A stretch of 64,000 nucleotides of DNA from Brochothrix thermosphacta DSM 20171 = FSL F6-1036 (GTDB taxonomy: Bacteria; Bacillota; Bacilli; Lactobacillales; Listeriaceae): NCBI RefSeq assembly GCF_036884295.1, contig NZ_CP145608.1:310001-374000 (forward strand), given 5' to 3'. The notes below the pieces were generated by a model, which had not been told where the DNA came from, searched no databases, and saw only the letters and a program-made list of their open reading frames with translations. This document shows positions 32,422-51,977 of this stretch, in pieces (position 1 is the stretch's first letter; each line of letters begins with the position of its first letter). The translations under genes were made by a program, and so were the position numbers.

Positions 32422-35400
32422 AACACTGTCGTGTTAAGCAAAACAGACGATACTACAAAGGAAAAATTACAAGGTGCAGTTTTTGACTTGCAAGATTCGA
32501 ACGGAAAAGTGTTGCAAAGTGGTTTAACAACAGATGATGAAGGCAAGATTACTGTTGATGAATTAGTTGTTGGAACATATCAATTTGTGGAAACCAAAGC
32601 TCCAACAGGTTATGAGTTGGATGCCACACCGATTAAGTTCGAGGTCAAAAAAGGCCAAACAGAAGTGGTACAAGTAAGCATGACAAACGAATTAACAAAA
32701 GGTGGTTTCGTATTAACGAAAACTGACGACAAAACAGGCGAAGCTTTACAAGGTGCTGCTTTTGAATTACAAGACACCGACGGAAAAGTATTACAAAGTG
32801 GTTTAACGACGGATGCTTCTGGTAAAATAGCTGTTTCTGATTTAACACCCGGCAACTATCAATTAGTCGAAACGAAAGCCCCAACAGGTTACGAGTTGGA
32901 TAGCACACCGATTAAATTTGAAGTTGAAAAAGGTCAAACAGAAGCTGTTCAAGTAAGCATGACGAACGAATTAACTAAAGGTGGTTTCGTATTAACTAAA
33001 ACTGACGATAAAACAGGCGAAGCTTTACAAGGTGCTGTTTTTGAATTACAAGACACCGACGGAAAAGTATTACAAAGTGGTTTAACGACGGATGCTTCTG
33101 GTAAAATAGCTGTTTCTGATTTAACACCCGGCAACTATCAATTAGTCGAAACGAAAGCCCCAACAGGTTACGAGTTGGATAGCACACCGATTAAATTTGA
33201 AGTTGAAAAAGGTCAAACAGAAGCTGTTCAAGTTTCGATGACAAATACATTAACAAAAGGTGGGTTTGTTTTAACAAAAACCGATGATAAAACAGGCGAA
33301 GCTTTACAAGGTGCTGTTTTTGAATTACAAGACACCGACGGAAAAGTCATTGAAAGTGGTTTAACGACGGATGCTCCAGGAAAAATAGCTGTTTCTGATT
33401 TAACACCCGGCAACTATCAATTAGTCGAAACGAAAGCCCCGACAGGTTATGAGTTGGATGCCACACCGATTAAATTTGAAGTTGAAAAAGGTCAAACAGA
33501 AGCTGTTCAAGTTTCGATGACAAATACATTAACAAAAGGTGGGTTTGTTTTAACAAAAACCGATGATAAAACAGGCGAAGCTTTACAAGGTGCTGTTTTT
33601 GAATTACAAGACACCGACGGAAAAGTCATTGAAAGTGGTTTAACGACGGATGCTTCAGGAAAAATAGCTGTTTCTGATTTAACACCCGGCAACTATCAGT
33701 TAGTAGAAACGAAAGCCCCAACAGGTTATGAGTTGGATAGCACACCGATTAAGGTCGAGGTTAAAAAAGGCCAAACAGAAGCTGTTCAAGTAAGCATGAC
33801 GAACGAATTAACTAAAGGTGGTTTCGTATTAACGAAAACTGACGATAAAACAGGTGAAGCTTTACAAGGTGCTGTTTTTGAATTACAAGATGCCGAAGGC
33901 AAAGTCATTGAAAGTGGTTTAACGACGGATGTTTCTGGTAAATTAGCAATCGATCAGTTAAAACCAGGCAACTATCAATTAGTAGAAACGAAAGCCCCAA
34001 CAGGTTATGAGTTGGATAGCACACCGATTAAGTTTGAGGTTAAAAAAGGTCAAACAGAAGCGGTACAAGTAAGCATGACGAACGAATTAACAAAAGGTGG
34101 CGTTATTTTAACGAAAACAGATAACGTATCAGGCGAAGCTTTACAAGGCGCAGTATTTGAATTACAAGATGTCGAAGGCAAAGTCATTGAAAGTGGTTTA
34201 ACGACGGATGTTTCTGGTAAAATAGCTGTTTCTGATTTAACACCCGGCAACTATCAATTAGTAGAAACAAAAGCCCCAACAGGTTACGAGTTGGATAGCA
34301 CACCGATTAAGGTCGAGGTTAAAAAAGGCCAAACAGAAGCTGTGCAAGTAAGCATGACAAATACATTAACAAAAGGTGGGTTTGTTTTAACAAAAACCGA
34401 TGATAAAACAGGCGAAGCTTTACAAGGTGCTGTTTTTGAATTACAAGACACCGACGGAAAAGTATTACAAAGTGGTTTAACGACGGATGCTTCAGGAAAA
34501 ATAGCTGTTTCTGATTTAACACCCGGCAACTATCAATTAGTCGAAACGAAAGCGCCAACAGGTTATGAGTTGGATAGCACACCGATTAAGTTTGAGGTTA
34601 AAAAAGGTCAGACAGAAGCTGTACAGTTAGCAATGACAAATGAGTTAAGTAAAGGTGATGTTATTCTAACAAAAACAGATAACGTATCAGGCGAAACTTT
34701 ACAAGGCGCAGTATTTGAATTACAAGATGCCGAAGACAAAGTCATTGAAAGTGGTTTAACGACCGATGTTTCTGGTAAATTAGCAATCGATCAGTTAAAA
34801 CCAGGCAACTATCAATTAGTCGAAACGAAAGCGCCAACAGGTTACGAGTTGGAAACCACACCGATTAAATTTGAAGTTAAAAAAGGTCAAACAAAAGCCG
34901 TGCAATTAGCAATGAAAAATGAGCTAAGCAAAGGTGGGTTTGTATTAACTAAAACCGATGATCAATCAGGTGAAGTTTTACAAGGTGCTGTTTTTGAATT
35001 ACAAGATGCCGAAGGCAAAGTCATTGAAAGTGGTTTAACGACCGATGTTTCAGGTAAATTAGCAATCGATCAGTTAAAACCCGGCAACTATCAATTAGTA
35101 GAAACCAAAGCGCCAACAGGTTACGAGTTGGAAACCACACCGATTAAATTTGAAGTTAAAAAAGGTCAAACAAAAGCCGTTCAATTAGCAATGACAAATG
35201 AGCTAAGCAAAGGTGGGTTTGTATTAACTAAAACCGATGATCAATCAGGTGAGGTATTACAAGGCGCAGTATTTGAATTACAAGATACTAATGGCAAAAA
35301 AGTTCAACGAAATTTAACCACGGATAGTGCTGGTAAAATAGCTGTTGCTAAATTAAAGCCAGGTAAGTATCAATTAATAGAAACAAAAGCACCTCAAGGT

Positions 35401-35490
35401 TATGAATTAGATGCTACTCCGGTGACATTTGAAGTTATGGGGAATCAAAAAGAAATAATTAAGGTAGCTAAGACAAATAAAGCGATAACA
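32422..35490 (+). repeat. Eleven tandem 279-bp Cna-B repeats
   Basis: Each 279-bp unit encodes 93 residues with the pattern VLTKTD (Lys of the isopeptide bond), LVETKAPTGYEL (E-box, catalytic Glu) and SMTNE (Asn). All eleven are exactly 279 bp with no indels, and inner copies are nearly identical at DNA level, implying recent amplification or gene conversion. The first and last units are the most divergent. Intramolecular Lys-Asn isopeptide bonds would make a stiff stalk. Confidence 0.92.
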
Positions 35491-35755: not shown

Positions 35756-36130
35756 TCAAATAGTAATATAAGGAATGGTACTCTTAAGAGCATTAACAAA
35801 TGGATTGGTACTCGCTTTCGCTCCGTCCCATACTGGCCTTGTATGCTCATGTCTTCGCAACAATGTCAGCACCCATACTGTCCTTGTAAGCTCATAACTT
35901 CGCAACGATATTAGCACCCATACTGTTCTCGTAAAGCTCATAACTATTGATTGGTACTCAATTGCTAGAAGGAATGGTACTCGCTGTCGCTGCGTCCCAT
36001 ACTGGCCTTGTATGCTCATGTCTTCGCAACAATGTCAGCACCCATACTGTTCTCGTAAAGCGAATAAATTCGCAACGATATTAGCACCCATACTGTTCTC
36101 GTATAGCGAATAAATCCGCTACGATAACAA
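35756..36130 (-). repeat. Repeat cluster B, opposite orientation to cluster A
   Basis: About 375 bp. Read on the minus strand it starts with GTTATCGTAGCGG right behind the ybaK terminator, then alternates CGAGAACAGTATGGGTGC, palindromic GCGAATTTATTCGC and CGCAGCGACAGCGAGTACC. Several units are duplicated within it (a block at about 35790-35930 recurs at about 35975-36095). Open frames across it are repeat by-products. Confidence 0.8.
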
Positions 36131-38293: not shown

Positions 38294-39658
38294 CTATAAG
38301 ATACTTTTTAAAGCCCATACTTTTGAGCGCCAACGATAAGCCATTAATCCTCCACGGAGGCCCTCATCGATGATGTAAGCAATCCAAATCCCAGCTAACC
38401 CTATGTGTAACGGAACACTTAAAAGATACGCAAACGGCAAGCTGACAATCCACATGATAATCAAACCAACGATGAGTGGAAAACGAACATCACCCGTTGC
38501 ATTAAGTGAGTTAATTAAGATGATATTTGTTGCCCGCACCGTTTCGAGTACCAACCCAAGTAAGAAAAGATTTTTGGACAATTCGATAACTTCGGGATCG
38601 TTTGTGAAGAAGCTCATAATTGGTGTTGAAAAAATATAAAGCAAAAAACTGCCGATAAGTGCGAGCGCAGTTCCAATAATCCAGCCATGCCAACCTTGAC
38701 GATAAGCTTGATCGGGATTTCGAGCACCGACTTGATGCCCAATCAAAATCTGTGTTGCTTGCCCAATTGAAATGGGTAATAAAATGACGAACTGTGAAAT
38801 ACTAGAAACATAAACTTTTGTTGTCAATGCAGTTGAACCCAGCACAGCAACAATAGTAGTAATAATAATTTGAGAACCATTATACGAAATCGATTCACCA
38901 GAAGATGGGAGACCCAGTCTTAAAATAGCATAGCTAAGTTTATAGGTGACATCTTTTACTTTTTTAAATGAGAAGGTATAGCCTACGTGACGTTTGAGAA
39001 GGTATAGAGCTAATAATAACCCCACAAAGTTAGCGAGGGCAGTTGCAATACCAACACCTGCCATACCTAATACAGGGATTCCGAAAGGTCCAAAGAGGAA
39101 CAAGTAGTTTCCGATTACATTTAAAATACTCGTAACAACAGGAACATACATGGCTTGTTTAACATAGCCGTGGCTTCTTAATATAGGAAGAATGGCTACT
39201 TGGATCGCAATGACAATAGATGCACCACCGATCCATTGTAAGAAAGGCGTTCCTAATGCAATTAAATTATCATCGAGTCCTAACCAGCTTAAAAAGTGTG
39301 ATGAAAAGAAGAGGAATACAACAGTGAGAATAATACCTAAGATAGCAGCTAGTACTAATCCAGTTGTAATAACATGCTCAATTTCTTTTCCACGTTTTGC
39401 GCCTAACAACTGCGACACCAGGATTTGTAAACCAACAGAAACAAACCCATAAATATAGATTGTTAAGACGATTATTTGGTTGGCGACACCTGCAGCTGTA
39501 GCTGCTTTATCAGAATAAAAACTCAGTTGAAAGATATCGATGTTTGTCATCAAAACTCTCAAAAATTGTTCTGTAAAGATAGGCCAAGCGAAGGTTAATA
39601 AAGCAATTGTCATCAATTTGATAGACATTTTGCCAGAGAGATTAAATTTAGATTGCAT
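38294..39658 (-). CDS. MATE family efflux transporter
   Basis: 454 residues. Start set at ATG 39658, six nt after AAGGAG; an ATG 15 bases earlier lies across the ribosome-binding site. Twelve hydrophobic segments and the two-fold pattern with Q-rich LLGAKRGKEIE (about 89-99) and LIGHQVGARNPDQA (about 307-320) define the multidrug and toxic compound extrusion family, which exports cationic compounds by sodium or proton antiport. Substrate unknown. It is divergent from the AI-2E gene. Confidence 0.88.
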   Translation of the reverse strand: MQSKFNLSGKMSIKLMTIALLTFAWPIFTEQFLRVLMTNIDIFQLSFYSDKAATAAGVANQIIVLTIYIYGFVSVGLQILVSQLLGAKRGKEIEHVITTGLVLAAILGIILTVVFLFFSSHFLSWLGLDDNLIALGTPFLQWIGGASIVIAIQVAILPILRSHGYVKQAMYVPVVTSILNVIGNYLFLFGPFGIPVLGMAGVGIATALANFVGLLLALYLLKRHVGYTFSFKKVKDVTYKLSYAILRLGLPSSGESISYNGSQIIITTIVAVLGSTALTTKVYVSSISQFVILLPISIGQATQILIGHQVGARNPDQAYRQGWHGWIIGTALALIGSFLLYIFSTPIMSFFTNDPEVIELSKNLFLLGLVLETVRATNIILINSLNATGDVRFPLIVGLIIMWIVSLPFAYLLSVPLHIGLAGIWIAYIIDEGLRGGLMAYRWRSKVWALKSIL

Positions 39659-39765
39659 AGTACACTCCTTCATAACAAATACATTTTACACATCTTAACT
39701 ATTATAAACCTCTATCTCAGAGTTGCAAGTGCCATATTTCTTTATACTAAGGTTACAATCTTTGA

Positions 39766-39771
39766 TATAAT
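39766..39771 (+). promoter_or_regulatory. Extended -10 promoter for the AI-2E gene
   Basis: TGATATAAT, an extended -10, lies 33 nt before the GTG start. The -35 is weak. Confidence 0.45.
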
Positions 39772-39804
39772 AGTGATAAACGTACGTTATAAGGAGGGAA
39801 TCGA

Positions 39805-40905
39805 GTGTTTAAAAACTCTAAATTATTTTTTTGGACAGTAGAAATTTTAGCAATTGCATTATTGTTATACTTATTTACACAGATGTCATTTTTATTTGGT
39901 CCGATTCGAACATTCATTTCCACTATTTTTATGCCAATGTTATTGGCGGGTTTTATTTTTTATATGCTAAACCCAGTGGTTGGATTGATAGAAAAGTTGA
40001 AAGTTAAACGAATATGGGCAATTGTTATAGTATTCTTTTTAATTATCGGGGTTATCGGCCTCTTTGCTTACATGATTTTTCCACCGTTAGCGAATCAATT
40101 AGTGGAGCTTGGAAAAGCTGTACCTGGTTATTGGAGTAAAGCAAATGATTATTTTGATAAGTTATTAACAAATCCACAAATTCAAAATCTTGATATCGAA
40201 AATATGTTAAAAGAAGCAAATCTTAATGTATCTAAAATAGTCAATTCCATTATATCTAATGCAACAAGCAGTATTACAAGTATCATTGGTGTGATTGCGA
40301 GCGTAACGATTACAATCGTAACAGTACCATTCATTGTTTTCTTCATGTTTAAAGATGGTCATAAATTCAGCGGTAAGGCTGTGAAATTTTTCCCACGTGC
40401 TGTTCAAGAAGAAGCGGGAACAATATTATCACAAATGAGCAAAACAATTTCATCTTATATCAGTGGACAAACGTTAGATTGTCTTTGTGTAGGTATTTTG
40501 ACATTTGTTGGTTATTTGATTATCGGTCAACCTTATGCATTGTTATTAGGTGTTATTGCCGGAAGCACAAATATCATTCCTTACTTAGGACCATGGATAG
40601 GTTTATTGCCTGCTGTGATAATTGGTATCTTTATTTCACCATGGCAAGCCATTGCCGTTATTATTGTTGTTTTAATTGTACAGCAAATTGATTCAAACAT
40701 TATGAATCCATTGATTGTGGGTCGTTCATTAAACGTCCATCCGTTAACAATTATTATTGTGTTGCTTGTAGCTGGTAATCTTGCGGGATTATTAGGAATG
40801 TTGCTTGCAGTGCCAACATACGCTGTTGCTAAAACAGTTATAATTAATATCGCTAAGATGTGGCGTTTAAACAAAGAAAGTCGTCTGGAAGTTAAAGAGC
40901 CTTAG
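39805..40905 (+). CDS. AI-2E (YtvI/PerM-like) membrane transporter
   Basis: 366 residues from GTG 39805 with AAGGAGGG. Seven to eight membrane segments with the family's C-terminal motif GPWIGLLPAVIIG (about 266-278) and IMNPLIVGRSLNVHPL (about 298-313) are visible. The AI-2E family includes exporters of autoinducer-2 and sodium antiporters, so the substrate is uncertain. It is monocistronic, 66 nt before ppaC. Confidence 0.85.
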   Translation: MFKNSKLFFWTVEILAIALLLYLFTQMSFLFGPIRTFISTIFMPMLLAGFIFYMLNPVVGLIEKLKVKRIWAIVIVFFLIIGVIGLFAYMIFPPLANQLVELGKAVPGYWSKANDYFDKLLTNPQIQNLDIENMLKEANLNVSKIVNSIISNATSSITSIIGVIASVTITIVTVPFIVFFMFKDGHKFSGKAVKFFPRAVQEEAGTILSQMSKTISSYISGQTLDCLCVGILTFVGYLIIGQPYALLLGVIAGSTNIIPYLGPWIGLLPAVIIGIFISPWQAIAVIIVVLIVQQIDSNIMNPLIVGRSLNVHPLTIIIVLLVAGNLAGLLGMLLAVPTYAVAKTVIINIAKMWRLNKESRLEVKEP

Positions 40906-40971
40906 TGTTCTTAAAATTTAAAATATGATAAAATAGAGACGAAAATGAGTATAAAAGGGGCGAATATAAAA

Positions 40972-41898
40972 ATGAGTAAAACATTAGTTTTTGGACATAA
41001 AAATCCAGATACAGATACAATTACAGCAGCGCTAAGCTACGCTGCCTTAAAACAAGCTTTAGGATTTGACGTAGAGGCTGTTCGTTTAGGAACGATTAAT
41101 CCTGAAACACAATTTGCTTTAGATTATTTCAAAGCAGAGGCACCACGCCTTGTTGAAACAGTGGCTAACGAAACCAACCAAGTTATTCTCGTAGATCACA
41201 ATGAAGCACAACAAAGTGTGGATGATCGCGCGGCTGTTACTATTACTGAAGTGATTGATCATCACCGTGTTGCCAACTTTGAAACGCTTGATCCATTGAT
41301 GATGCGTATCGAGCCAGTGGGTTGTACAGCAACAATTATCTTGAAACTTTACACTGAAAATAACATTGTACCAACACAACAAAATGCAGGATTAATGTTA
41401 TCAGCTATAGTATCAGATACATTGTTATTCAAATCACCAACATGTACAGAACAAGATGTTGCAGCAGCTGCAATTTTAGCTGAAATAGCACAAGTTGATG
41501 TTCAAGTATACGGCTTAGACCTTTTAAAAGCAGGCGCAGATGTTAGTACAAAAACAATTGATGAATTAATTACATTGGATGCGAAAGAATTTGATATGGG
41601 CAACCAAAAAGTTGAAATAGCACAAGTTAACGTTGTTGATCCATTAGATGTACTTATTCGCCAGCCTGAAATTGAACTTGCCATCAACGAAAAAATCGCA
41701 AGCAAAGGATTAGATATGTTCTTGTTTGCAATTACTAATATTTTGACAAACGATTCAGTTGTGCTTGTATTAGGTACAGCAGCAGGTAAAGTAGAACAAG
41801 CGTATGATGTTCAACTTGTAAATAACTTAGCAACATTACCAGGTGTTGTTTCACGTAAAAAACAAATTGTTCCTATTATTACTCCTTTCTTTGAGTAA
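40972..41898 (+). CDS. ppaC: Manganese-dependent inorganic pyrophosphatase (family II)
   Basis: 308 residues from ATG 40972; the frame opens 27 nt earlier, but AAAAGGGG fits the later ATG. DHH motifs FGHKNPDTD (about 6-14), VDHNEA (about 74-79) and EVIDHHR (about 93-99) supply the manganese ligands, and SRKKQIVP near the C-terminus binds substrate. It hydrolyses pyrophosphate to drive biosynthesis. Length matches Bacillus PpaC (309). The 119-bp repeats begin just after the stop. Confidence 0.95.
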
Positions 41899-41900
41899 AA

Positions 41901-42376
41901 ACGAAAACAGCCCGTTCAATGGCTCCTAGCTTGGAGAAAAATGAAGGAGGCTATCTGTGCCTGCTGATTTTTTTGAAAGAGAGTGAGGCATTGGCTGTTG
42001 CAGTTGGAGAAAAGTAAAAACGAAAACAGCCCGTTCAATGGCTACTAGCTTGGAGAAAAATGAAGGAGGCTATCTGTGCCTGCTGATTTTTTTGAAAGAG
42101 AGTGAGACATTGGCTGTTGCAGTTGGAGAAAAGTAAAAACGAAAACAGCCCGTTCAATGGCTACTAGCTTGGAGAAAAATGAAGGAGGCTATCTGTGCCT
42201 GCTGATTTTTTTGAAAGAGAGTGAGACATTGGCTGTTGCAGTTGGAGAAAAGTAAAAACGAAAACAGCCCGTTCAATGGCTACTAGCTTGGAGAAAAATG
42301 AAGGAGGCTATCTGTGCCTGCTGATTTTTTTGAAAGAGAGTGAGACATTGGCTGTTGCAGTTGGAGAAAAGTAAAA
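41901..42376 (+). repeat. Four tandem 119-bp repeats with a conserved micro-ORF
   Basis: Units begin at 41901, 42020, 42139 and 42258. Copies 2-4 are identical; copy 1 differs only at 41925 and 41988. Each unit has AACAGCC near its start and GGCTGTT near its end, able to pair, and a strong AAGGAGG six nt before GTG CCT GCT GAT TTT TTT GAA AGA GAG TGA (nine codons). A second short frame (ATG eight codons) overlaps it. No protein gene spans the array. It lies between ppaC and the zinc operon terminator. Confidence 0.9.
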
Positions 42377-42409
42377 GCAGAGCACACTTGTTCAACAATG
42401 GATAAACCT

Positions 42410-42446
42410 AAAAACCTTGATGATTAACTAATAATCAAGGTTTTTT
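42410..42446 (+). terminator. Terminator after the repeat array
   Basis: AACCTTGAT and ATCAAGGTT form the stem, followed by six T. It would end any transcript running from ppaC through the repeats. Confidence 0.8.
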
Positions 42447-42449
42447 CTC

Positions 42450-42498
42450 TTGTGTTTTTACTAAGGTTAGCATACAATTAAACGTAATGGTTACGTTT
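42450..42498 (+). promoter_or_regulatory. Promoter with Zur box for the zinc uptake operon
   Basis: TTGTGT (42450-42455), 17 nt, TACAAT (42473-42478), followed at once by AAACGTAATGGTTACGTTT (42480-42498), an inverted repeat with 8 of 9 matching pairs around one central base. It matches the TCGTAATNATTACGA Zur consensus closely. A repressor there would block transcription when zinc is plentiful. Confidence 0.65.
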
Positions 42499-42519
42499 TA
42501 GATGCAGGGAGTGGAAATG

Positions 42520-43227
42520 ATGGATTATATTCAAGTGAAAGATATTATGTTTAAATACGATGATGAACCTGTGTTATCCGATGTTTCATTTCATATTAGT
42601 GAAGGTGAATTTGTGTCATTAACAGGAGAAAACGGCGCGGCAAAATCAACGTTATTAAAAATTGTTTTAGGCCTATTAAAACCAGCAAGTGGTGAAGTAA
42701 CGCGAACATTAGTGAATACTGAAGGTGAAAAATTTCAAATTGGTTATTTACCACAACAAGTTGCTTCATTCAATGAAGGATTTCCAAGTACAGTAATTGA
42801 ATTGGTACGTTCAGGACGTTTTCAGAGAGGCAAGTGGTTTAAACGCTTGTCACAAACGGATCATGAAAAAGTAGAAGAAGCTTTGCGTTCTGTTGATATG
42901 TGGAAGTATAAAGATGCTCAAATCGGTGAGTTATCTGGCGGTCAAAAACAACGTATTTGTATGGCACGTGTTTTAGCTGCTGAGCCAGATTTATTTGTTT
43001 TAGACGAACCTACAACAGGAATGGATAAAGAAAATCGTAAAAACTTTTATAAATTAATGCGTCATTATGCGGATTCACATAATCGTGCAATCTTAATGGT
43101 GACTCATGATGATGAGGATTTAACACGATATGTCGATCGTGAATTACGCTTAACACGAAAGGAAGATACCGAGTGGAGATGTTTTTGCATGAATTCATGC
43201 AGCGCGCATTCATCGCAGGAACATTAA
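42520..43227 (+). CDS. znuC: Zinc/manganese ABC transporter ATP-binding protein
   Basis: 235 residues from ATG 42520 (eight nt after GGGAG; ATG 42517 is also possible). Walker A is GENGAAKST, with Ala where most ABC proteins have Gly, a variant typical of the zinc (ZnuC/AdcC) subfamily. The signature LSGGQKQR and Walker B LFVLDEP are intact. It powers import of zinc together with the permease that overlaps its 3' end by 55 bp. The substrate-binding protein is not next to it, so it must be encoded elsewhere. Confidence 0.88.
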   Translation: MDYIQVKDIMFKYDDEPVLSDVSFHISEGEFVSLTGENGAAKSTLLKIVLGLLKPASGEVTRTLVNTEGEKFQIGYLPQQVASFNEGFPSTVIELVRSGRFQRGKWFKRLSQTDHEKVEEALRSVDMWKYKDAQIGELSGGQKQRICMARVLAAEPDLFVLDEPTTGMDKENRKNFYKLMRHYADSHNRAILMVTHDDEDLTRYVDRELRLTRKEDTEWRCFCMNSCSAHSSQEH

Positions 43228-44000
43228 TTGCGATTTTAGCACCGCTGTTTGGTTTATTTGTTATATTAAGAAGGCAGTCGTTGATTGCTGATACACTCGC
43301 ACATATTTCGCTTGCCGGAGTAGCTGTTGGTTTTACAATTGGCGTCAACCCAACATTAACAACAATTGCGGTTGTGGTATTAGGTGGCTTGACGATTGAA
43401 GTAATGCGCAGTTTTTTCAAGACATATTCTGAATTATCAATTGCAATCCTCATGTCTGGTGGTTTGGCAATTGCGCTTGTATTGACTAGTTTTAACGGTG
43501 GAAATTCAACTGCGAGTATTTCACAATATTTATTTGGATCGATTGTTACAATCGATGCTGAAAGTGTTTTTTGGTTATTGGGACTTGCTATTGTGGCAGT
43601 CACACTGTATTTATTATTCCGTCGACACATGTATGTGTTAACATTTGATGAGGATACAGCTTATACAAGTGGATTAAACACACGTTTGATTTCAATGGTA
43701 TTTAGTGTGCTTACAGGTTTAGCAGTAGCGATTATGATGCCGATTGTAGGCGCATTATTAGTCTCATCATTAATGATTTTACCTTCAGCTATCGCTATTA
43801 AATGGGTGAAAAGTTTTGATTTCGCTATCATATTGAGCATTGTAATGGGATTAATTGGTGTTTACAGTGGATTAACGATGTCTTACCAAGTGGGATCACC
43901 ACCAGGCGCATCGATTACGATTGTATTAATTGTGATGTTTATTATATCAATGATTGTTCGCACAATTTGGTTGCGTAGCAAGGGACGAAAATACAAATAA
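43173..44000 (+). CDS. znuB: Zinc/manganese ABC transporter permease (ABC-3)
   Basis: 275 residues starting at ATG 43173 inside the znuC end. Nine or so hydrophobic segments and the ABC-3 pattern (RRQSLIADTLAHISLAG, about 33-49) mark the ZnuB/MntB family; this cytoplasmic loop contacts the ATPase. The Zur box upstream of znuC argues for zinc rather than manganese. It ends 14 nt before hflX. Confidence 0.88.
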   Translation: MEMFLHEFMQRAFIAGTLIAILAPLFGLFVILRRQSLIADTLAHISLAGVAVGFTIGVNPTLTTIAVVVLGGLTIEVMRSFFKTYSELSIAILMSGGLAIALVLTSFNGGNSTASISQYLFGSIVTIDAESVFWLLGLAIVAVTLYLLFRRHMYVLTFDEDTAYTSGLNTRLISMVFSVLTGLAVAIMMPIVGALLVSSLMILPSAIAIKWVKSFDFAIILSIVMGLIGVYSGLTMSYQVGSPPGASITIVLIVMFIISMIVRTIWLRSKGRKYK

Positions 44001-44014
44001 GAAGAGGTGAAACG

Positions 44015-45271
44015 ATGACAAATGTTGTATTAGTAGGCGTAGAATTGCCTCGAGTAAATGATTTTGCTGAATCGATGATAGAACTCCATGGCTTAGCTGA
44101 GGCAGCTGATTTGAATGTAACGCATGTACTCACGCAAAAACGTGAACGTGTCCATGCGGGAACTTATCTAGGTAAAGGTAAATTAGCAGAGTTACAAGGT
44201 TACTTAGAAGGCACTGAGAGTGAAGCTATTATTGTGAACGATGAATTAACACCTAGTCAAATCAAGAATCTAGAAGCGGTACTGGAATGTGAAATAATGG
44301 ATCGTACGATGTTGATTTTAGCTATATTTGCAGAACGTGCACAAACTCGTGAAGCAAAATTACAAGTGGAAGTTGCACGACTACAATACCTGATGCCACG
44401 TCTTGCTGGAATGGGTATTTCAATGAGCCGTCAAGGTGGTGGTTCATCAGGATTGGCAAACCGTGGTGCGGGTGAAACAAAACTAGAACTTGATCGTCGA
44501 ACAATTAGTGATAAAATCAACCAGTATCAGCGAGAGCTGAAAGTCGTAGCAAATGAGCGCGATAATCAACGTCGTTCACGTCAGAAAAAAGGTTTGCGTG
44601 TAGCAGCATTAGTCGGGTACACAAACGCAGGTAAATCGAGCATTATGAATACTTTGGTTTCTTCATACCATCCGCAAACGACAGAAAAACAAGTGTTAGA
44701 AAAAGATATGTTATTTGCAACGTTAGATACTTCTGTGCGTCGAATCCATCCAAAATACCATCAACCATTCTTGTTGACTGATACAGTTGGTTTTGTTGAT
44801 AAATTACCAACACAATTGGTAAAAGCATTCCGGTCAACACTTGAAGAAGTTGTTCAGGCCGATGTGTTAATCCATGTGATTGATGCTTCTAGTCCTGATT
44901 CTGAAAAACGCCAACGTGTGACAGAAGAAACGTTGAAAGCAATCGGTGCAGAAGACAAGCCAATGATATATGTTTGGAATAAAGCTGATTTGGTACCTGA
45001 AGTATCTCAGATTATGCCGAAAAATCATCTTTGGGTATCAACTTATACAGGTAAAGGTATTTCTGAACTGATGAGTGCTGTTGAAGCTGAGTTATTTGCC
45101 GATGAAGAGCAGCATGTTTGGTTAGTTCCGTATGATCGTGGCGATGTTGTTGCACTTATGAATGAAGAAGCCCGTATTATTGAACTTGAATATGTCGAAG
45201 AAGGCACACAAATCACTGCGATTACACCTCAGCACTTTATAAGAAATTATGGAGAGTTTATCGTCAAATAA
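44015..45271 (+). CDS. hflX: GTPase HflX
   Basis: 418 residues after GAAGAGGTG. The HflX N-terminal domain (GTYLGKGKLAEL, about 49-60) and Arg-rich coiled coil precede the G domain with G1 GYTNAGKSS (about 203-211), G3 DTVGF (about 255-259) and G4 NKAD (about 324-327). It binds the 50S subunit and splits stalled ribosomes. Length and order are typical. It may be read from the zinc operon promoter, since the gap to znuB is 14 nt. Confidence 0.93.
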   Translation: MTNVVLVGVELPRVNDFAESMIELHGLAEAADLNVTHVLTQKRERVHAGTYLGKGKLAELQGYLEGTESEAIIVNDELTPSQIKNLEAVLECEIMDRTMLILAIFAERAQTREAKLQVEVARLQYLMPRLAGMGISMSRQGGGSSGLANRGAGETKLELDRRTISDKINQYQRELKVVANERDNQRRSRQKKGLRVAALVGYTNAGKSSIMNTLVSSYHPQTTEKQVLEKDMLFATLDTSVRRIHPKYHQPFLLTDTVGFVDKLPTQLVKAFRSTLEEVVQADVLIHVIDASSPDSEKRQRVTEETLKAIGAEDKPMIYVWNKADLVPEVSQIMPKNHLWVSTYTGKGISELMSAVEAELFADEEQHVWLVPYDRGDVVALMNEEARIIELEYVEEGTQITAITPQHFIRNYGEFIVK

Positions 45272-45308: not shown

Positions 45309-46463
45309 TTATTTATTTTTAAAGATTTTCTCGATTGTTTTGTATTGTTTCTCTGTTAATAGAGGCTCATATTCTTCAAGTAATTCATCGGATTCAGCTG
45401 CTGAGAACGAACTGAAATCTTCTTTTTCTAACTCTTTGACCAACTCTTTAAATTCATCGTCAGCCATATTAAAATCGCCATCAAGTTCTTCATCAAGTTC
45501 TTCATCAAGTTCTTCATCAAGTTCTTCATCAAGTTCATCACTTAGATAAGGCGCTAAAATAGCCTCGATTTCCTTAACATTAACGATTTCTTTTTTCGCA
45601 GGTAGTTTAATGGCTACCTGTTTATCATTGGGTTTATAGTTATATAAAACCTCAATTAAGTCAATAAAACCTTCATCTTTTTTATCAAAAGTAGAAGTCA
45701 GTGCCACAGCAAGATCATTTGTTTTAGTATTTAAATTAAATTTAGCATCAAGCGCTTTAGGAAGATTTTTAATCATTTCATCGAAATCAGGGATAACGAA
45801 TTCTTTGTATTCTTTTTTAGATTTAGAAAGTGTATTGAATTTTTCAGCTAAAACAACAACATCTTTTTTAGTTAGTTTAAAAGTAACCACATCATTCTCT
45901 TTTGTGAAACGTTCTTCGTCTAGTGAAGTGAAATAGTTAGATACCTCTTTTTGAAATTCCTTAGTAAGATTTGTTGCGCTTTTGCTGTCTATTTCTAAAG
46001 TATCTGCATCAGAAAGTTTAAGGTACTTACCGTCAAAAGTGCTAAGAGTCTTTTCATCAGAGGGTAATTCTGAGTTAAACTGAGAAGCTATTTTTGAAAT
46101 CCCTCTGAAAATATCTAAAGAGAAATACATATCGTCATTTTTACTTATAAATTCTAACGGTATTTTTTGTCCGAGTGCTTCAATATTTAACTTTGTATTT
46201 GTTGCTTTTTCCGATACATCGTGTTGCATCGAGCCGGTTACTTTAATGTCCTTTAATTGAGTAACCATCACGTTGGCTTCAGGCGAATCTTTCATATCCG
46301 CTGTTAGTTTAATATCTTTAATGGTCATTGAGATATCGTTGCTTGAATTCTCTGTAACGTTCTTTTTCGTATAATCAAAAAATTCTTCTTTAGCAGATTT
46401 ACCACAACCTGCTAAAATAATAACGCTCAAGATAATCAGTAACGCTAACTTTATTTTTTTCAT
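45309..46463 (-). CDS. Lipoprotein A of a duplicated pair, with ELDE repeats
   Basis: 384 residues with GGAGTGGGG upstream. The N-terminus has a lipoprotein signal with lipobox LAGC (Cys20). The body resembles its neighbour at 46647-47765 throughout, with shared LPKALDAK/LPKNITLK-type and KPNDKQVAIK motifs. Before the C-terminal domain it contains five 12-bp units giving DELDEELDEELD-type acidic residues (nt 45481-45540), which the neighbour lacks. It is extracytoplasmic. The family is not recognised, perhaps a DUF6612-like sensor or binding protein. Confidence 0.75.
   Translation of the reverse strand: MKKIKLALLIILSVIILAGCGKSAKEEFFDYTKKNVTENSSNDISMTIKDIKLTADMKDSPEANVMVTQLKDIKVTGSMQHDVSEKATNTKLNIEALGQKIPLEFISKNDDMYFSLDIFRGISKIASQFNSELPSDEKTLSTFDGKYLKLSDADTLEIDSKSATNLTKEFQKEVSNYFTSLDEERFTKENDVVTFKLTKKDVVVLAEKFNTLSKSKKEYKEFVIPDFDEMIKNLPKALDAKFNLNTKTNDLAVALTSTFDKKDEGFIDLIEVLYNYKPNDKQVAIKLPAKKEIVNVKEIEAILAPYLSDELDEELDEELDEELDEELDGDFNMADDEFKELVKELEKEDFSSFSAAESDELLEEYEPLLTEKQYKTIEKIFKNK
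45481..45540 (-). repeat. Five 12-bp repeats in the lipoprotein gene
   Basis: Five units of TCAAGTTCTTCA (plus strand) with one substitution in the last, encoding ELDE on the minus strand. A 12-bp unit keeps the frame, so copy number may vary without loss of protein. Confidence 0.9.
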
Positions 46464-46605
46464 TTCCCCACTCCTTAGTTATAAATGTTCATATTATAAC
46501 TATAACAATCTTGTTATTTATTACAAGTTCATAAAGTGTAGTGTAATCTTCAAAAAAACAAACACTTTAAAAGCAATCAAATTTAAGTAAAAAACAATTC
46601 TTTCT

Positions 46606-46643
46606 AAAAAAAAACGTTGTACTTCATGGGATACAACATTTTG
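46606..46643 (-). terminator. Terminator of lipoprotein B, near-copy of 45271-45306
   Basis: AACGTTGTA and TACAACATT arms; on the minus strand the stem is followed by nine T. Its similarity to the terminator downstream of lipoprotein A indicates that the duplication included the terminator. Confidence 0.8.
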
Positions 46644-46646
46644 TTA

Positions 46647-47765
46647 TTATTTATTCTCTAATAAAGCTTTTTCCATCGCTTTATATTGTTTAGGTGTTAG
46701 AATTTCTTTATAATTTGCTAAAAGTGAATCGATATCATTTTTGGTTAAAGCACTTAAATCTTCTGTTGTGATTGCTTCTAGCAACTGATTAAATTCAGCA
46801 TCATCGATTTTAACATCGTCATAAGAAGCGTTCAATTGGGACTCTTCAGTAGCAGCTAAAAGCTCGGATACTTCATCCATTGTCATAATGTTTTTCTTAG
46901 CAGGTACCTTGATAGCAACTTTTTTATCATTAGGTTTTAGCGTATACAATAATTCTACAGACTTAATTGGTACTTGCTCATTTTTATCAAATTCAATAAG
47001 CATTGTCATATCAGACGCTTGGGATTTAGTGTTATTGTTTATTTTAAGAGTGATGTTTTTTGGTAATGATTTTATGACTTTATCAAGATCAGGAATAACA
47101 TACTCAGCATAAGTCTTTTTCGATTTCGCAACTTTATTGTATTCTTTAGCTAATTCGACAATGTCTTTTTTTGTGATAGAAAACGTAACAACATCATCTT
47201 TTTTAGTGAAGCGCTCTTCACTTAGCGAGTCAAAGTATTTTGTTACTGATACTTGATAATCCTTACCAAATGCTTTTGCATTTTTAGTATCAATATCCAA
47301 TTCGTTTTTTTCGGAGATGTTGATGTATTTACCTTCAACCTCTTTAAATGTTAATTCATCAAACGGTAAACTAGCACCAAACTGAGTAGAGATATTTGCA
47401 ATCCCTTTTAAAATGTCTAATGAGAGATACATATCATCATTTTTGCTAATAAAGCTTAAGGGTAGCTTTTGACCAAGTGCCTCAATTTTCAAGTCAGTGG
47501 CAGATAACTTTTCTTTAACATCTTGCTGAATAGAACCAGTTACTTTAATGTCTTTCAATTGAGTCACCATGGCATTAACTGACGGATCACCACTCATATC
47601 AGATGTTAATTTGATATCTTTTATCTTCATTGAAAAATCATTGCTTGAACTTTCTGTAGCTGTTTTTTTAGCAGCATCAAAAAATTCTTCTTTAGCAGAC
47701 TTACCACAACCTGCTAAAACAATAATACTTAATAAAACAAGTAGAGCTAACTTCATTTTTTTCAT
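46647..47765 (-). CDS. Lipoprotein B of a duplicated pair
   Basis: 372 residues with GGAGGGAAA upstream. Lipobox LAGC (Cys20). The sequence follows lipoprotein A nearly end to end, including FISKNDDMY and RFTK.DDVVTF, but lacks the ELDE run and has diverged to roughly half identity by eye. It is transcribed toward its paralogue, with a terminator between them, so the two may be separately regulated. Function is unknown. Such proteins often sense or bind extracellular ligands. Confidence 0.75.
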   Translation of the reverse strand: MKKMKLALLVLLSIIVLAGCGKSAKEEFFDAAKKTATESSSNDFSMKIKDIKLTSDMSGDPSVNAMVTQLKDIKVTGSIQQDVKEKLSATDLKIEALGQKLPLSFISKNDDMYLSLDILKGIANISTQFGASLPFDELTFKEVEGKYINISEKNELDIDTKNAKAFGKDYQVSVTKYFDSLSEERFTKKDDVVTFSITKKDIVELAKEYNKVAKSKKTYAEYVIPDLDKVIKSLPKNITLKINNNTKSQASDMTMLIEFDKNEQVPIKSVELLYTLKPNDKKVAIKVPAKKNIMTMDEVSELLAATEESQLNASYDDVKIDDAEFNQLLEAITTEDLSALTKNDIDSLLANYKEILTPKQYKAMEKALLENK

Positions 47766-50199: not shown

Positions 50200-50756
50200 T
50201 TTATTTTGGGGCTGACCATTTATTTTTACTTTCGTTATTTTTGAGTACTTCAATCTAAAATATCTTAAAATTGCATAACGGGATTTAATAATATAACGAG
50301 ACCTGGAATTTAAACTGTAGTATTAGTGTCCCTAACTTTACTGTCTGTCTCCAATTGCAACACCAATTCTCTTACAAAATTTCAGAACAAACAAAAAACA
50401 TTAGACCTGAAATTCAAGTTTTAACTCTTTATCTCTATAACGTTGTTCTTTGTCTCCAGAACTCCAAGCTTACTTTATCAAAACTTCATAAACGTAAAAA
50501 ACTCACTAGACCTGAAATTAAAACTGAAGTGTAGACGTGAACCAGTCTATAACAGTTTTAATTCCTCAGTCTAACGAGTAATGAATGTTTTATTTCTCTA
50601 ACTACAACAACCGATGTTTTTAGCTATTTCAAAAAAATCATCAGGGATAGGTAGCTTGTTTCATTTTTCTACAATATCTTCGACACCAAACAGGTTGTTT
50701 TCATTGTGAAATCTTCCAATTTATCAATGTTTTTACGAGGTTGAATATACTTTCGC
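50200..50756. repeat. Three degenerate 104-bp tandem repeats in a gene-free stretch
   Basis: AGACCTGgAATT recurs at 50299, 50403 and 50508, and other words (TGTCTCCA, TTATCAAAAC-like) recur at matching offsets. The copies differ at many positions. No reading frame is conserved. The rest of this AT-rich stretch holds no recognisable gene. Confidence 0.6.
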
Positions 50757-51977
50757 TTAAAAGTAATCAGAGTAGTAAGGGACGTCTGTTGGTATAATAC
50801 TTTCAAGTAATTGAACGTGTTCAGGTGATGCTTGTAAACGCCCGATTTTTTGCAAATACGTGGGGCGTTTATAACCTAGGAACATCGTTGTAAGTGTGGG
50901 AATATTAATAACGGAATCAGCTTCTTTATCAGTAAGCGCGATTGTTATTTTGCCATCACAAAATGTGAGTCGATACGTATGACGATTCCAATCAGCTAAA
51001 GGATCTTCAACTTTAAAAAGCCATTCACCGTTTATTTTTGATAACGTTTTGAATGGGAATTTCTCAAGGAAAGGTAAAACATCAACAATTCTTCCCATAT
51101 AATAAGGAGAAATTGTTTCTTTGATCTCACTATCATCTAATAAGAAGGCAAGTGGCTCATCTGTATAAGTTGAACCTTTAACTTCGGTCACCATTGAGAA
51201 ATGAGCTGAAATGAAGTTCCATAAACCAATACGGGCTTCTTCATTCAGAAAGACCATTTCTTTCAGGTAAAAGACCTCATCGGCTAATCGATAAAATAAA
51301 AATCCAGTAGGCGTGCCTTCAGTATCACGGTAAACAGCAGCCATCATTTCATCTGATTCCCAGCGCCAGTATTCATCCCATGCGAGTTGGTTACGAATCA
51401 TACTGCCGTGTTGCTGTGACGCAAAGCGATTATAAATATCAAAGATAAGTGGATCATCACATTCAGTACGTTCAACCATGCCTAATACTTGTTTCGTTTT
51501 AGGGAGCTGTGTATCTTTTACAGTAAATGTCATTTTATCACTGATTATTTCCCAACCTTTGCGACGGTAAAACGGAATTGAGTAGGGATAAAGATACGAG
51601 ATATATTGCTGGTTTTCACGCATTTTTTCTAATGCACTCACCATCAATTGATTCATTAAACCAAGTCCAGCATATTCTGGATACGTACCAACACCTGTAA
51701 CACCACCCATTGCATATTCTGTCCCAAAAATATTGACTGTAAAAGGATAAATAGCGATTTGTGATATTAATTTTTGTTGATCAAACCAACCGATGACATC
51801 GGCTTGTTCAAGCACTGGTAATTTTGCTTGTTTAATTTCATCTTCTTCCCAGCCAAATGTTTGTAAATCATCACTTGTTACTTGAAAAACGTAACGTAAT
51901 AATTCATTAAATTGTGTGACATCATCTTTGTTAACTAGTTTCAATTCAAAATTATGTTTTAGAGCTTTCGGCTCCAT
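50757..51977 (-). CDS. Eis-like GNAT N-acetyltransferase
   Basis: 406 residues from ATG 51977, eight nt after GGAGG; an earlier in-frame start at 51992 lacks support. It has two GNAT-like domains and a C-terminal SCP2-like domain as in Eis proteins. YAMGGVTGVGTYPEYAGLGLMNQLM (about 75-99) is the AcCoA-binding region. Eis enzymes acetylate aminoglycosides or Lys side chains in mycobacteria; the substrate here is unknown. The length agrees (about 400). Stand-alone gene. Confidence 0.85.
   Translation of the reverse strand: MEPKALKHNFELKLVNKDDVTQFNELLRYVFQVTSDDLQTFGWEEDEIKQAKLPVLEQADVIGWFDQQKLISQIAIYPFTVNIFGTEYAMGGVTGVGTYPEYAGLGLMNQLMVSALEKMRENQQYISYLYPYSIPFYRRKGWEIISDKMTFTVKDTQLPKTKQVLGMVERTECDDPLIFDIYNRFASQQHGSMIRNQLAWDEYWRWESDEMMAAVYRDTEGTPTGFLFYRLADEVFYLKEMVFLNEEARIGLWNFISAHFSMVTEVKGSTYTDEPLAFLLDDSEIKETISPYYMGRIVDVLPFLEKFPFKTLSKINGEWLFKVEDPLADWNRHTYRLTFCDGKITIALTDKEADSVINIPTLTTMFLGYKRPTYLQKIGRLQASPEHVQLLESIIPTDVPYYSDYF

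What the first reader, a model, noticed from the sequence alone, without database searches (positions are those of the whole stretch)
41901..42376. Four 119-bp tandem repeats, each with a strong ribosome site and a nine-codon micro-ORF
Three copies are identical and one differs at two bases. Each has AAGGAGG, a six-base spacer and a GTG frame encoding MPADFFERE, and pairable ends AACAGCC and GGCTGTT. AGGC next to the Shine-Dalgarno can pair with GCCT after the GTG, hiding the start. The array follows ppaC and ends at a terminator just before a zinc operon. It could be a multi-copy leader-peptide RNA, a sponge, a small-protein system or a mobile repeat.
Basis: partly seen in the sequence, partly recalled or inferred. 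Interest (0 to 1): 0.7.

Follow-up and report, generated by a model that had tools for sequence, protein, structure and literature searches.

The report
Mobile-looking hairpin repeat after ppaC
The four tandem repeats are copies of a folded, apparently mobile DNA repeat that is scattered in dozens to over a hundred copies through many bacteria of the class Bacilli, and the tiny 'gene' seen inside each copy is most likely a by-product of its hairpin.

Summary
The array is real: four 119-bp copies, three identical, one with two changes. It starts on the ppaC stop codon and ends before an intrinsic terminator. The leader-peptide reading is not supported: the micro-ORF lies in the variable apical hairpin and is lost in dispersed copies. 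The unit is one subfamily of a large family of ~113-nt nested hairpins: at least 58 matches in this genome, 100 in Brochothrix campestris, and matches in 39 of 295 genomes sampled from the order and 37 of 399 from the class. All share one rod (P1, P2, a one-sided CGUU bulge, 6-bp P3, 6-bp P4, variable P5) with very strong covariation. Copies sit in heterogeneous head-to-tail arrays beside unrelated genes. Host bases next to an array recur between its units (AGTA at all five junctions here), like a target-site duplication, and arrays often end in a truncated 5' half-unit. I read it as a non-autonomous mobile repeat that folds on one strand, amplified here by tandem duplication. The mobilising enzyme is unknown; Y1 transposase and reverse transcriptase are absent from this genome. 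Rfam lacks the family, but Bacillaceae-1 RNA (RF01690) sits inside related-looking units of other Bacilli. Transcription, mobility and any cellular function are untested.

The parts
40945..41898 (+). ppaC (manganese-dependent inorganic pyrophosphatase); its last codon and stop (GAG TAA) supply the first AGTA
   Evidence: NF003877 411.9 bits against cut-off 283; sequence
41894..42012 (+). repeat unit 1 (two base differences), subfamily A
42013..42131 (+). repeat unit 2, nested hairpin -34.1 kcal/mol (z -2.9); the reverse strand folds at -21.4
42132..42250 (+). repeat unit 3, identical to unit 2
42251..42369 (+). repeat unit 4, identical to unit 2
42370..42408 (+). truncated 5' half of a different subfamily's unit, preceded by the same AGTA; 27 of 35 bases match the start of the unit at genome position 795242
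   Evidence: pattern also seen after B. campestris arrays
42410..42446 (+). intrinsic-terminator-like hairpin with T run, after the array
   Evidence: fold -12.5 kcal/mol
41894..42373 (+). AGTA junctions at 41894, 42013, 42132, 42251 and 42370: host bases repeated between all units (target-site-duplication-like)
   Evidence: same rule tested statistically in B. campestris
41944..41987 (+). apical P5 hairpin region of unit 1 with AAGGAGG and the nine-codon GTG frame (also in units 2-4); judged incidental
50593..50707 (-). second copy of the family in the window (sister subfamily B, different position and orientation)

Best explanation
The array is a local tandem amplification of one subfamily of a large, ancient family of interspersed folded repeats. 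Each unit is a ~113-nt rod of nested helices (shown by covariation). Units behave like non-autonomous mobile elements. They lie beside unrelated genes, at different genes in the two Brochothrix genomes as far as sampled (shown for the sampled loci). They chain head to tail in mixed arrays (shown). The host bases next to the array recur between units (shown for B. campestris and for this array), so insertion or duplication seems anchored at a fixed point a few bases upstream of AAAG (inferred). Because the same strand folds better in every lineage tested, whichever way the neighbouring gene runs, the folded strand itself is probably what a recombinase or copying process recognises, as single-stranded DNA or as the element's own RNA (inferred). 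At ppaC an older unit of another subfamily came first and survives as the truncated half at the far end; a subfamily A unit then entered next to the stop codon and was copied to four, probably by unequal recombination or slippage (inferred). In the ppaC mRNA the array would add four stable stem-loops before the terminator; any effect on mRNA stability is secondary and untested.
For: Copies in own genome: 18 blastn matches, 58 model matches at E<=1e-4. One shared structure: on 99 distinct units from four lineages, 89.8% of cells paired against 67.6% shuffled, 605 double-sided changes against 192, covariation 0.624 against 0.226 (0 of 500 shuffles) and 0.09-0.21 when partners are slid. Rod seen unit by unit in Brochothrix, a sister Listeriaceae genus and other families. 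Wide spread: >=100 in B. campestris, >=102 and 36 in two genomes of the sister genus, 90-102 in two genomes of family f3; order 39/295, class 37/399 genomes. Mixed tandem arrays. No orthologous host genes shared between sampled arrays of the two Brochothrix genomes; B. campestris has no array after ppaC. Host-flank duplication: in 21 B. campestris arrays the last 3 host bases match the linker at 0.841 identity against 0.462+-0.055 shuffled, 0 of 2000; AGTA at all five junctions here. A unit interrupting another unit at the same point in several loci of genome G528. At least two host frames (purD, a thiE-like gene) read into a unit and stop inside it.
Against: No mobilising enzyme was found: Y1_Tnp and RVT_1 are absent from this genome; other recombinase families were not tested. 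No strain-level pair of empty and filled sites was available. The ends carry no classical terminal inverted repeats beyond the rod itself. The flank duplication is clear in B. campestris and significant in G251 but weak in G004 and not significant in this genome as a whole with a crude test, where mixed linkers blur it. Strict co-orientation with the upstream gene in Brochothrix (all 33 own-genome arrays) would also fit an RNA function in 3' UTRs. Part of the strand asymmetry in folding may follow from the G-over-C bias of the sense strand.
Confidence: 0.7

Rival explanations
1. The units are functional 3' UTR RNA elements: the rod is selected because it is transcribed with the upstream gene and protects the mRNA 3' end, insulates termination, or binds a protein; tandem copies add dose.
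For: In Brochothrix all 33 sampled own-genome arrays run in the direction of the upstream gene, most starting at or within a few bases of its stop codon; 34 of 41 in B. campestris. The sense strand folds better in 44 of 45 own units, with 178 against 43 G-U pairs, and in 37/37, 14/14 and 2/2 units elsewhere.
Against: In genome G251 (family f3) 29 of 30 arrays are antisense to the gene next to their 5' end, several about 20 nt from its start codon, yet the same element strand folds better there too (26 of 30). Sister genus G004: 11 same, 8 opposite. Host genes are unrelated (dnaJ, ndk, mnmA, aspS, ilvC, prfC, ruvA, carB, an rluA-family gene, purD) and not shared between species.
Confidence: 0.2
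2. Multi-copy leader peptide, small-protein system or sponge: each unit makes or senses something through the nine-codon MPADFFERE frame behind a strong Shine-Dalgarno.
For: SD, spacing, GTG and frame are intact in all four tandem copies, and two dispersed copies keep an ATG and nine codons.
Against: Start lost in two of four dispersed subfamily A copies and in three of six subfamily B copies; frame and stop differ in the rest. The whole apical region is swapped for unrelated hairpins in other subfamilies. The array lies behind ppaC, not in front of a regulated gene; promoter-like sites are no more frequent than chance.
Confidence: 0.02
3. Plain local tandem duplication or assembly artefact with no mobility: a repeat born once at ppaC.
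For: Copies 2-4 are identical, which needs recent local duplication.
Against: The same unit and its relatives occur at many other places and in many genomes; the genome is a single 2.56-Mb contig. Copy number in other strains was not testable.
Confidence: 0.04
4. Integron-like recombination sites: folded single strands (attC-like) used by a tyrosine recombinase, placed after stop codons like cassette sites.
For: Conserved structure with variable apex, strand-specific folding, head-to-tail arrays, position right after stop codons in Brochothrix.
Against: No attC core (GTTRRRY/RYYYAAC) recognised at the ends by eye; host genes are ordinary chromosomal genes; opposite orientation in G251. No integrase association was tested.
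Confidence: 0.04

Closest known systems
Bacillaceae-1 RNA (Rfam RF01690, Weinberg et al. 2010, PMC2864571)
   Same: Found above gathering score at the position of the neighbouring unit in two loci of other Bacilli (L317 48.1 bits, L313 39.5); in L317 it is flanked by arms like those of this family (AAAAGCGG...GCTGGACA)
   Different: The 67-nt Rfam model covers only an apical two-loop insert with UCCUG loops; it matches none of the Brochothrix, sister-genus or f3 loci searched. The single-unit fold in L317 did not reproduce the full rod. That paper lists it as a likely RNA of unknown role
bcr1-bcr3 repeats of the Bacillus cereus group
   Same: Intergenic, dozens of copies, described as MITE-like and often part of UTRs (PMC3446304), associated with a short TTTAT motif and a proposed recombination-like mobility (PMC6542083)
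REP/RAYT elements
   Same: Many intergenic palindromic copies per genome
   Different: REPs are 20-40 bp with GTAG or CGTC tags (PMC3733652); here the unit is ~113 nt, and the Y1 transposase domain is absent from this genome and from element-rich G004 and G008
Efa-1 and other stem-loop families (Cozzuto et al. 2008, PMC2267715)
   Same: Stem-loop families in Firmicutes intergenic regions; Efa-1 is 163 nt, 65 copies, in Enterococcus faecalis
BOX/RUP repeats of Streptococcus pneumoniae
   Same: Short interspersed, structured, non-coding repeats
   Different: Recalled, and listed in PMC2267715 only; not compared by sequence

Membership tests
Bacillaceae-1 RNA (RF01690) | Match to the Rfam covariance model above gathering score | tested here: not met
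   No match up to E=1 in window 39000-45000, nor in the B. campestris, sister-genus and f3 loci searched; met only in neighbouring units of L317 and L313 from other families
REP/RAYT system | Genome encodes a Y1-type transposase (PF01797) | tested here: not met
   0 matches in G000, G004, G008; presence elsewhere does not follow element abundance
REP/RAYT system | 20-40 bp palindrome with a GTAG/CGTC tag | tested here: not met
   Unit is a ~113-nt rod starting AAAG; tag definition from PMC3733652
Retroelement / group II intron derivative | Reverse transcriptase in the host genome | tested here: not met
   RVT_1 absent from G000, G008, G012, present in element-free G005, G007
MITE-like mobile repeat (bcr1-like) | Many dispersed copies at unrelated sites | tested here: met
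MITE-like mobile repeat (bcr1-like) | Target-site duplication | tested here: inconclusive
   Host-flank duplication strong in B. campestris and at all five junctions here, significant in G251, weak or absent in G004 and G000 overall
MITE-like mobile repeat (bcr1-like) | Sequence homology to bcr1 | not tested
   bcr1 sequence and primary papers not held
Leader-peptide attenuator | Conserved short ORF with start and SD upstream of a regulated gene | tested here: not met
   Start or frame lost in several dispersed copies; array follows ppaC
Integron attC site | Core sites GTTRRRY and RYYYAAC and an integron integrase | not tested
   No search for integrases was run; the cores were looked for only by eye at the unit ends

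The most novel reading that the evidence does not exclude
A class-wide mobile repeat whose folded strand is added at one fixed point beside a gene boundary, re-copying the same 3-6 host bases at each addition, so that arrays grow at the gene-proximal end and old units decay at the far end: a polarised, orientation-bound insertion mechanism driven by an unidentified enzyme, with Bacillaceae-1 RNA as one of its apical variants.
Probability: 0.2. Interest if true: 0.85.

Novelty: new variant of a known kind. Interest (0 to 1): 0.58.

Why it matters
A single RNA/ssDNA architecture present in up to a hundred or more copies per genome across Bacilli is missing from Rfam, so its copies are left unannotated or can be mis-called as small ORFs. 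It probably links the named Bacillaceae-1 RNA to a wider repeat family and gives a concrete, testable mobility signature (host-flank linkers, terminal half-units, overwritten stop codons). Its copies lengthen 3' or 5' UTRs of core genes, so it could affect mRNA stability and strain typing.

Tried and rejected
Leader peptide, small protein, sponge: start and frame not conserved. Rfam families: none in the window region, only unrelated weak hits in relatives except RF01690. Phage or plasmid origin: no match for the array in phages or plasmids, none for a sister-genus unit; one short Anoxybacillus plasmid match for another unit; no exact core in IMG/VR. Y1 transposase and reverse transcriptase as movers. 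Functional link to ppaC: Gottfriedia endophytica (L057) has six tandem copies behind ppaC too, but it is the only one of 80 ppaC loci with any match, so I treat this as chance. The first structural alignment A1 missed the outer stem because of a one-base register shift at the CGUU bulge; single folds resolved it. Sequence-string and keyword paper searches found no prior description. One keyword search returned only unrelated papers.

Full report
Observation. The array is as described apart from its edges. Four copies of 119 bp run from 41894 to 42369, copies 2-4 identical and copy 1 different at two bases. Each has AAGGAGG, six bases, and a nine-codon GTG frame. The array begins on the stop codon of ppaC and is followed by a terminator-like hairpin and a metal ABC transporter whose nearest models are zinc systems, below cut-off. 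After copy 4 there is one more piece, 42370-42408, that matches the first 35 bases of another unit in the genome at 27 positions.

Organism. The genome is one contig of 2,564,037 bases. The nearest named PpaC is that of Brochothrix campestris at 80%. The same-genus genome G001 shares a contig length (129,265) with that record, so I call G001 B. campestris, and the window is probably from Brochothrix thermosphacta. This is inference; the record is unnamed.

Copies elsewhere. Eighteen blastn matches lie in the same genome. Reading around them showed that the unit is one of several subfamilies that share a frame, starting (T)AAAAGC or AAAACG, with TTGGAG in the left half, TTTTTGAAA in the right half and CT(A/G)GAGA or similar at the end, but with different stems and different apical hairpins. 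Subfamilies are chained head to tail in mixed arrays. A covariance model from 38 units finds 58 matches at E<=1e-4 in this genome.

Structure. Single folds give one rod in all lineages: P1 (AAGC/GCT), a 2x2 loop, P2 (5-8 bp; AACAGCC/GGCTGTT here), a bulge CGTT(T/C) on the 5' side only, P3 of 6 bp, a 3x3 loop, P4 of 6 bp, a TTGGA/GA loop, and a variable P5 and apex. On 99 distinct units, 89.8% of pair cells form against 67.6% in shuffles, covariation is 0.624 against 0.226, no shuffle of 500 reaches it, and sliding partners by one to three columns drops it to 0.09-0.21. The alignment was fitted to a model built on inner pairs, so this leans somewhat towards the structure, but the margin is very large.

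The micro-ORF. It lies in P5, the region that differs between subfamilies. Of four dispersed full copies of subfamily A, two keep an ATG and nine codons and two have lost the start (GAG, GTC). Of six subfamily B copies, three have no start and three run on without the stop. I conclude that the SD and start are by-products of the AGGC/GCCT stem.

Strand. The sense strand folds better than its complement in 44 of 45 own units (mean 9.5 kcal/mol, 178 against 43 G-U pairs) and in every other lineage, also with DNA parameters. Some of this may reflect the G-over-C content of the sense strand.

Position. In this genome all 33 sampled arrays follow a gene on the same strand; most begin at the stop codon or within a few bases of it, and several apparent gaps look filled by further repeat sequence. 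In B. campestris 34 of 41 follow a same-strand gene, 21 of them within 25 bases. In sister-genus genome G004 it is 11 against 8. In G251 of family f3 it is the reverse: 29 of 30 are antisense to the gene next to their 5' end, seven of them within 40 bases of its start codon, next to the Shine-Dalgarno. Gene calls are simple open reading frames. Because orientation flips between lineages while the better-folding strand does not, the fold is a property of the element, not of the host gene's transcript. This is the main argument against a purely 3' UTR function.

Signs of mobility. Host genes are unrelated housekeeping genes and not shared between the sampled arrays of the two Brochothrix genomes. 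B. campestris has no array after ppaC. In 21 of 42 B. campestris arrays a partial copy of the array's own 5' end follows the last full unit; its linker repeats the host bases before the array (last three bases 0.841 identical, shuffled 0.462, 0 of 2000). In the window AGTA, from the ppaC end GAG TAA, recurs at all five junctions. The same test is significant in G251, weak in G004 and not significant in G000 as a whole. In genome G528 six loci show one unit inside another, at a similar point. Two frames (purD and a thiE-like gene, the latter named by eye) read into a unit and stop there.

Spread. R2, built from 110 units of four lineages, is positive in 39 of 295 genomes of the order and 37 of 399 of the class at strict cut-offs, with at least 100 copies in B. 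campestris, 102 in G004 and 90-102 in G251 and G243 (scored candidates were capped at 150). All genomes listed for g3 of the same family are negative. E-values from these models are rough. The named example is Gottfriedia endophytica, six copies behind ppaC in an alternating pattern.

Known relatives. Rfam has no match for the Brochothrix, sister-genus or f3 units. RF01690 Bacillaceae-1 matches above gathering score at the neighbouring unit in two loci of other Bacilli, so that named RNA probably is an apical variant of related units. bcr1 is the closest concept in print (PMC6542083, PMC3446304) but could not be compared. I found no paper describing this family; most subscription papers are not in the library.

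Mechanism. Best: a non-autonomous mobile folded repeat, locally amplified. Shown: the structure, dispersal, mixed arrays, host-flank linkers in B. campestris and here, flipped orientation between lineages. Inferred: that the folded strand is the substrate, that units enter at the gene-proximal end, that copies 2-4 arose by unequal recombination. Not found: the enzyme (Y1 transposase and reverse transcriptase not present in this genome).

Noticed in passing
window 50300-50760: Another unit of the family (50593-50707, minus strand) among copies of a second repeat containing CTAGACCTGAAATT; that motif occurs 34 times in the genome with up to one mismatch, against 2 for the reversed control, often near family arrays.
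   Followed up: partly
window 35802-36126: A different 45-46 bp repeat (CCCATACTGT...TTCGCAACGATATCAGCA) in tandem; similar pieces lie beside family arrays at genome 795242 and 1079660.
   Followed up: no
window 32467-35437: About ten 279-bp tandem repeats (75-84% alike, a multiple of three), probably a repetitive surface-protein gene.
   Followed up: no
window 45309-47765: Two neighbouring paralogous lipoprotein-like genes; one has a 12-bp in-frame repeat (DELDEELDEELD) at 45479-45540.
   Followed up: no
genome 680215 (purD) and 2335074 (thiE-like): The host reading frame continues into the repeat and ends at a stop inside it, so the element seems to have replaced the native C-terminal end and stop.
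   Followed up: partly
L057:3945-4735: Gottfriedia endophytica carries six tandem family units right after ppaC, largely alternating between two subtypes that are only ~49% alike position by position (no gaps).
   Followed up: yes
L319-L324 (genome G528): Six loci with one unit nested inside another at a similar point; three share a longer downstream flank with TTATCCACA.
   Followed up: partly
L245, L254, L257, L258, L260, L262, L270 (genome G251): Units begin about 20 bases from a start codon, next to the Shine-Dalgarno, antisense to the gene.
   Followed up: partly
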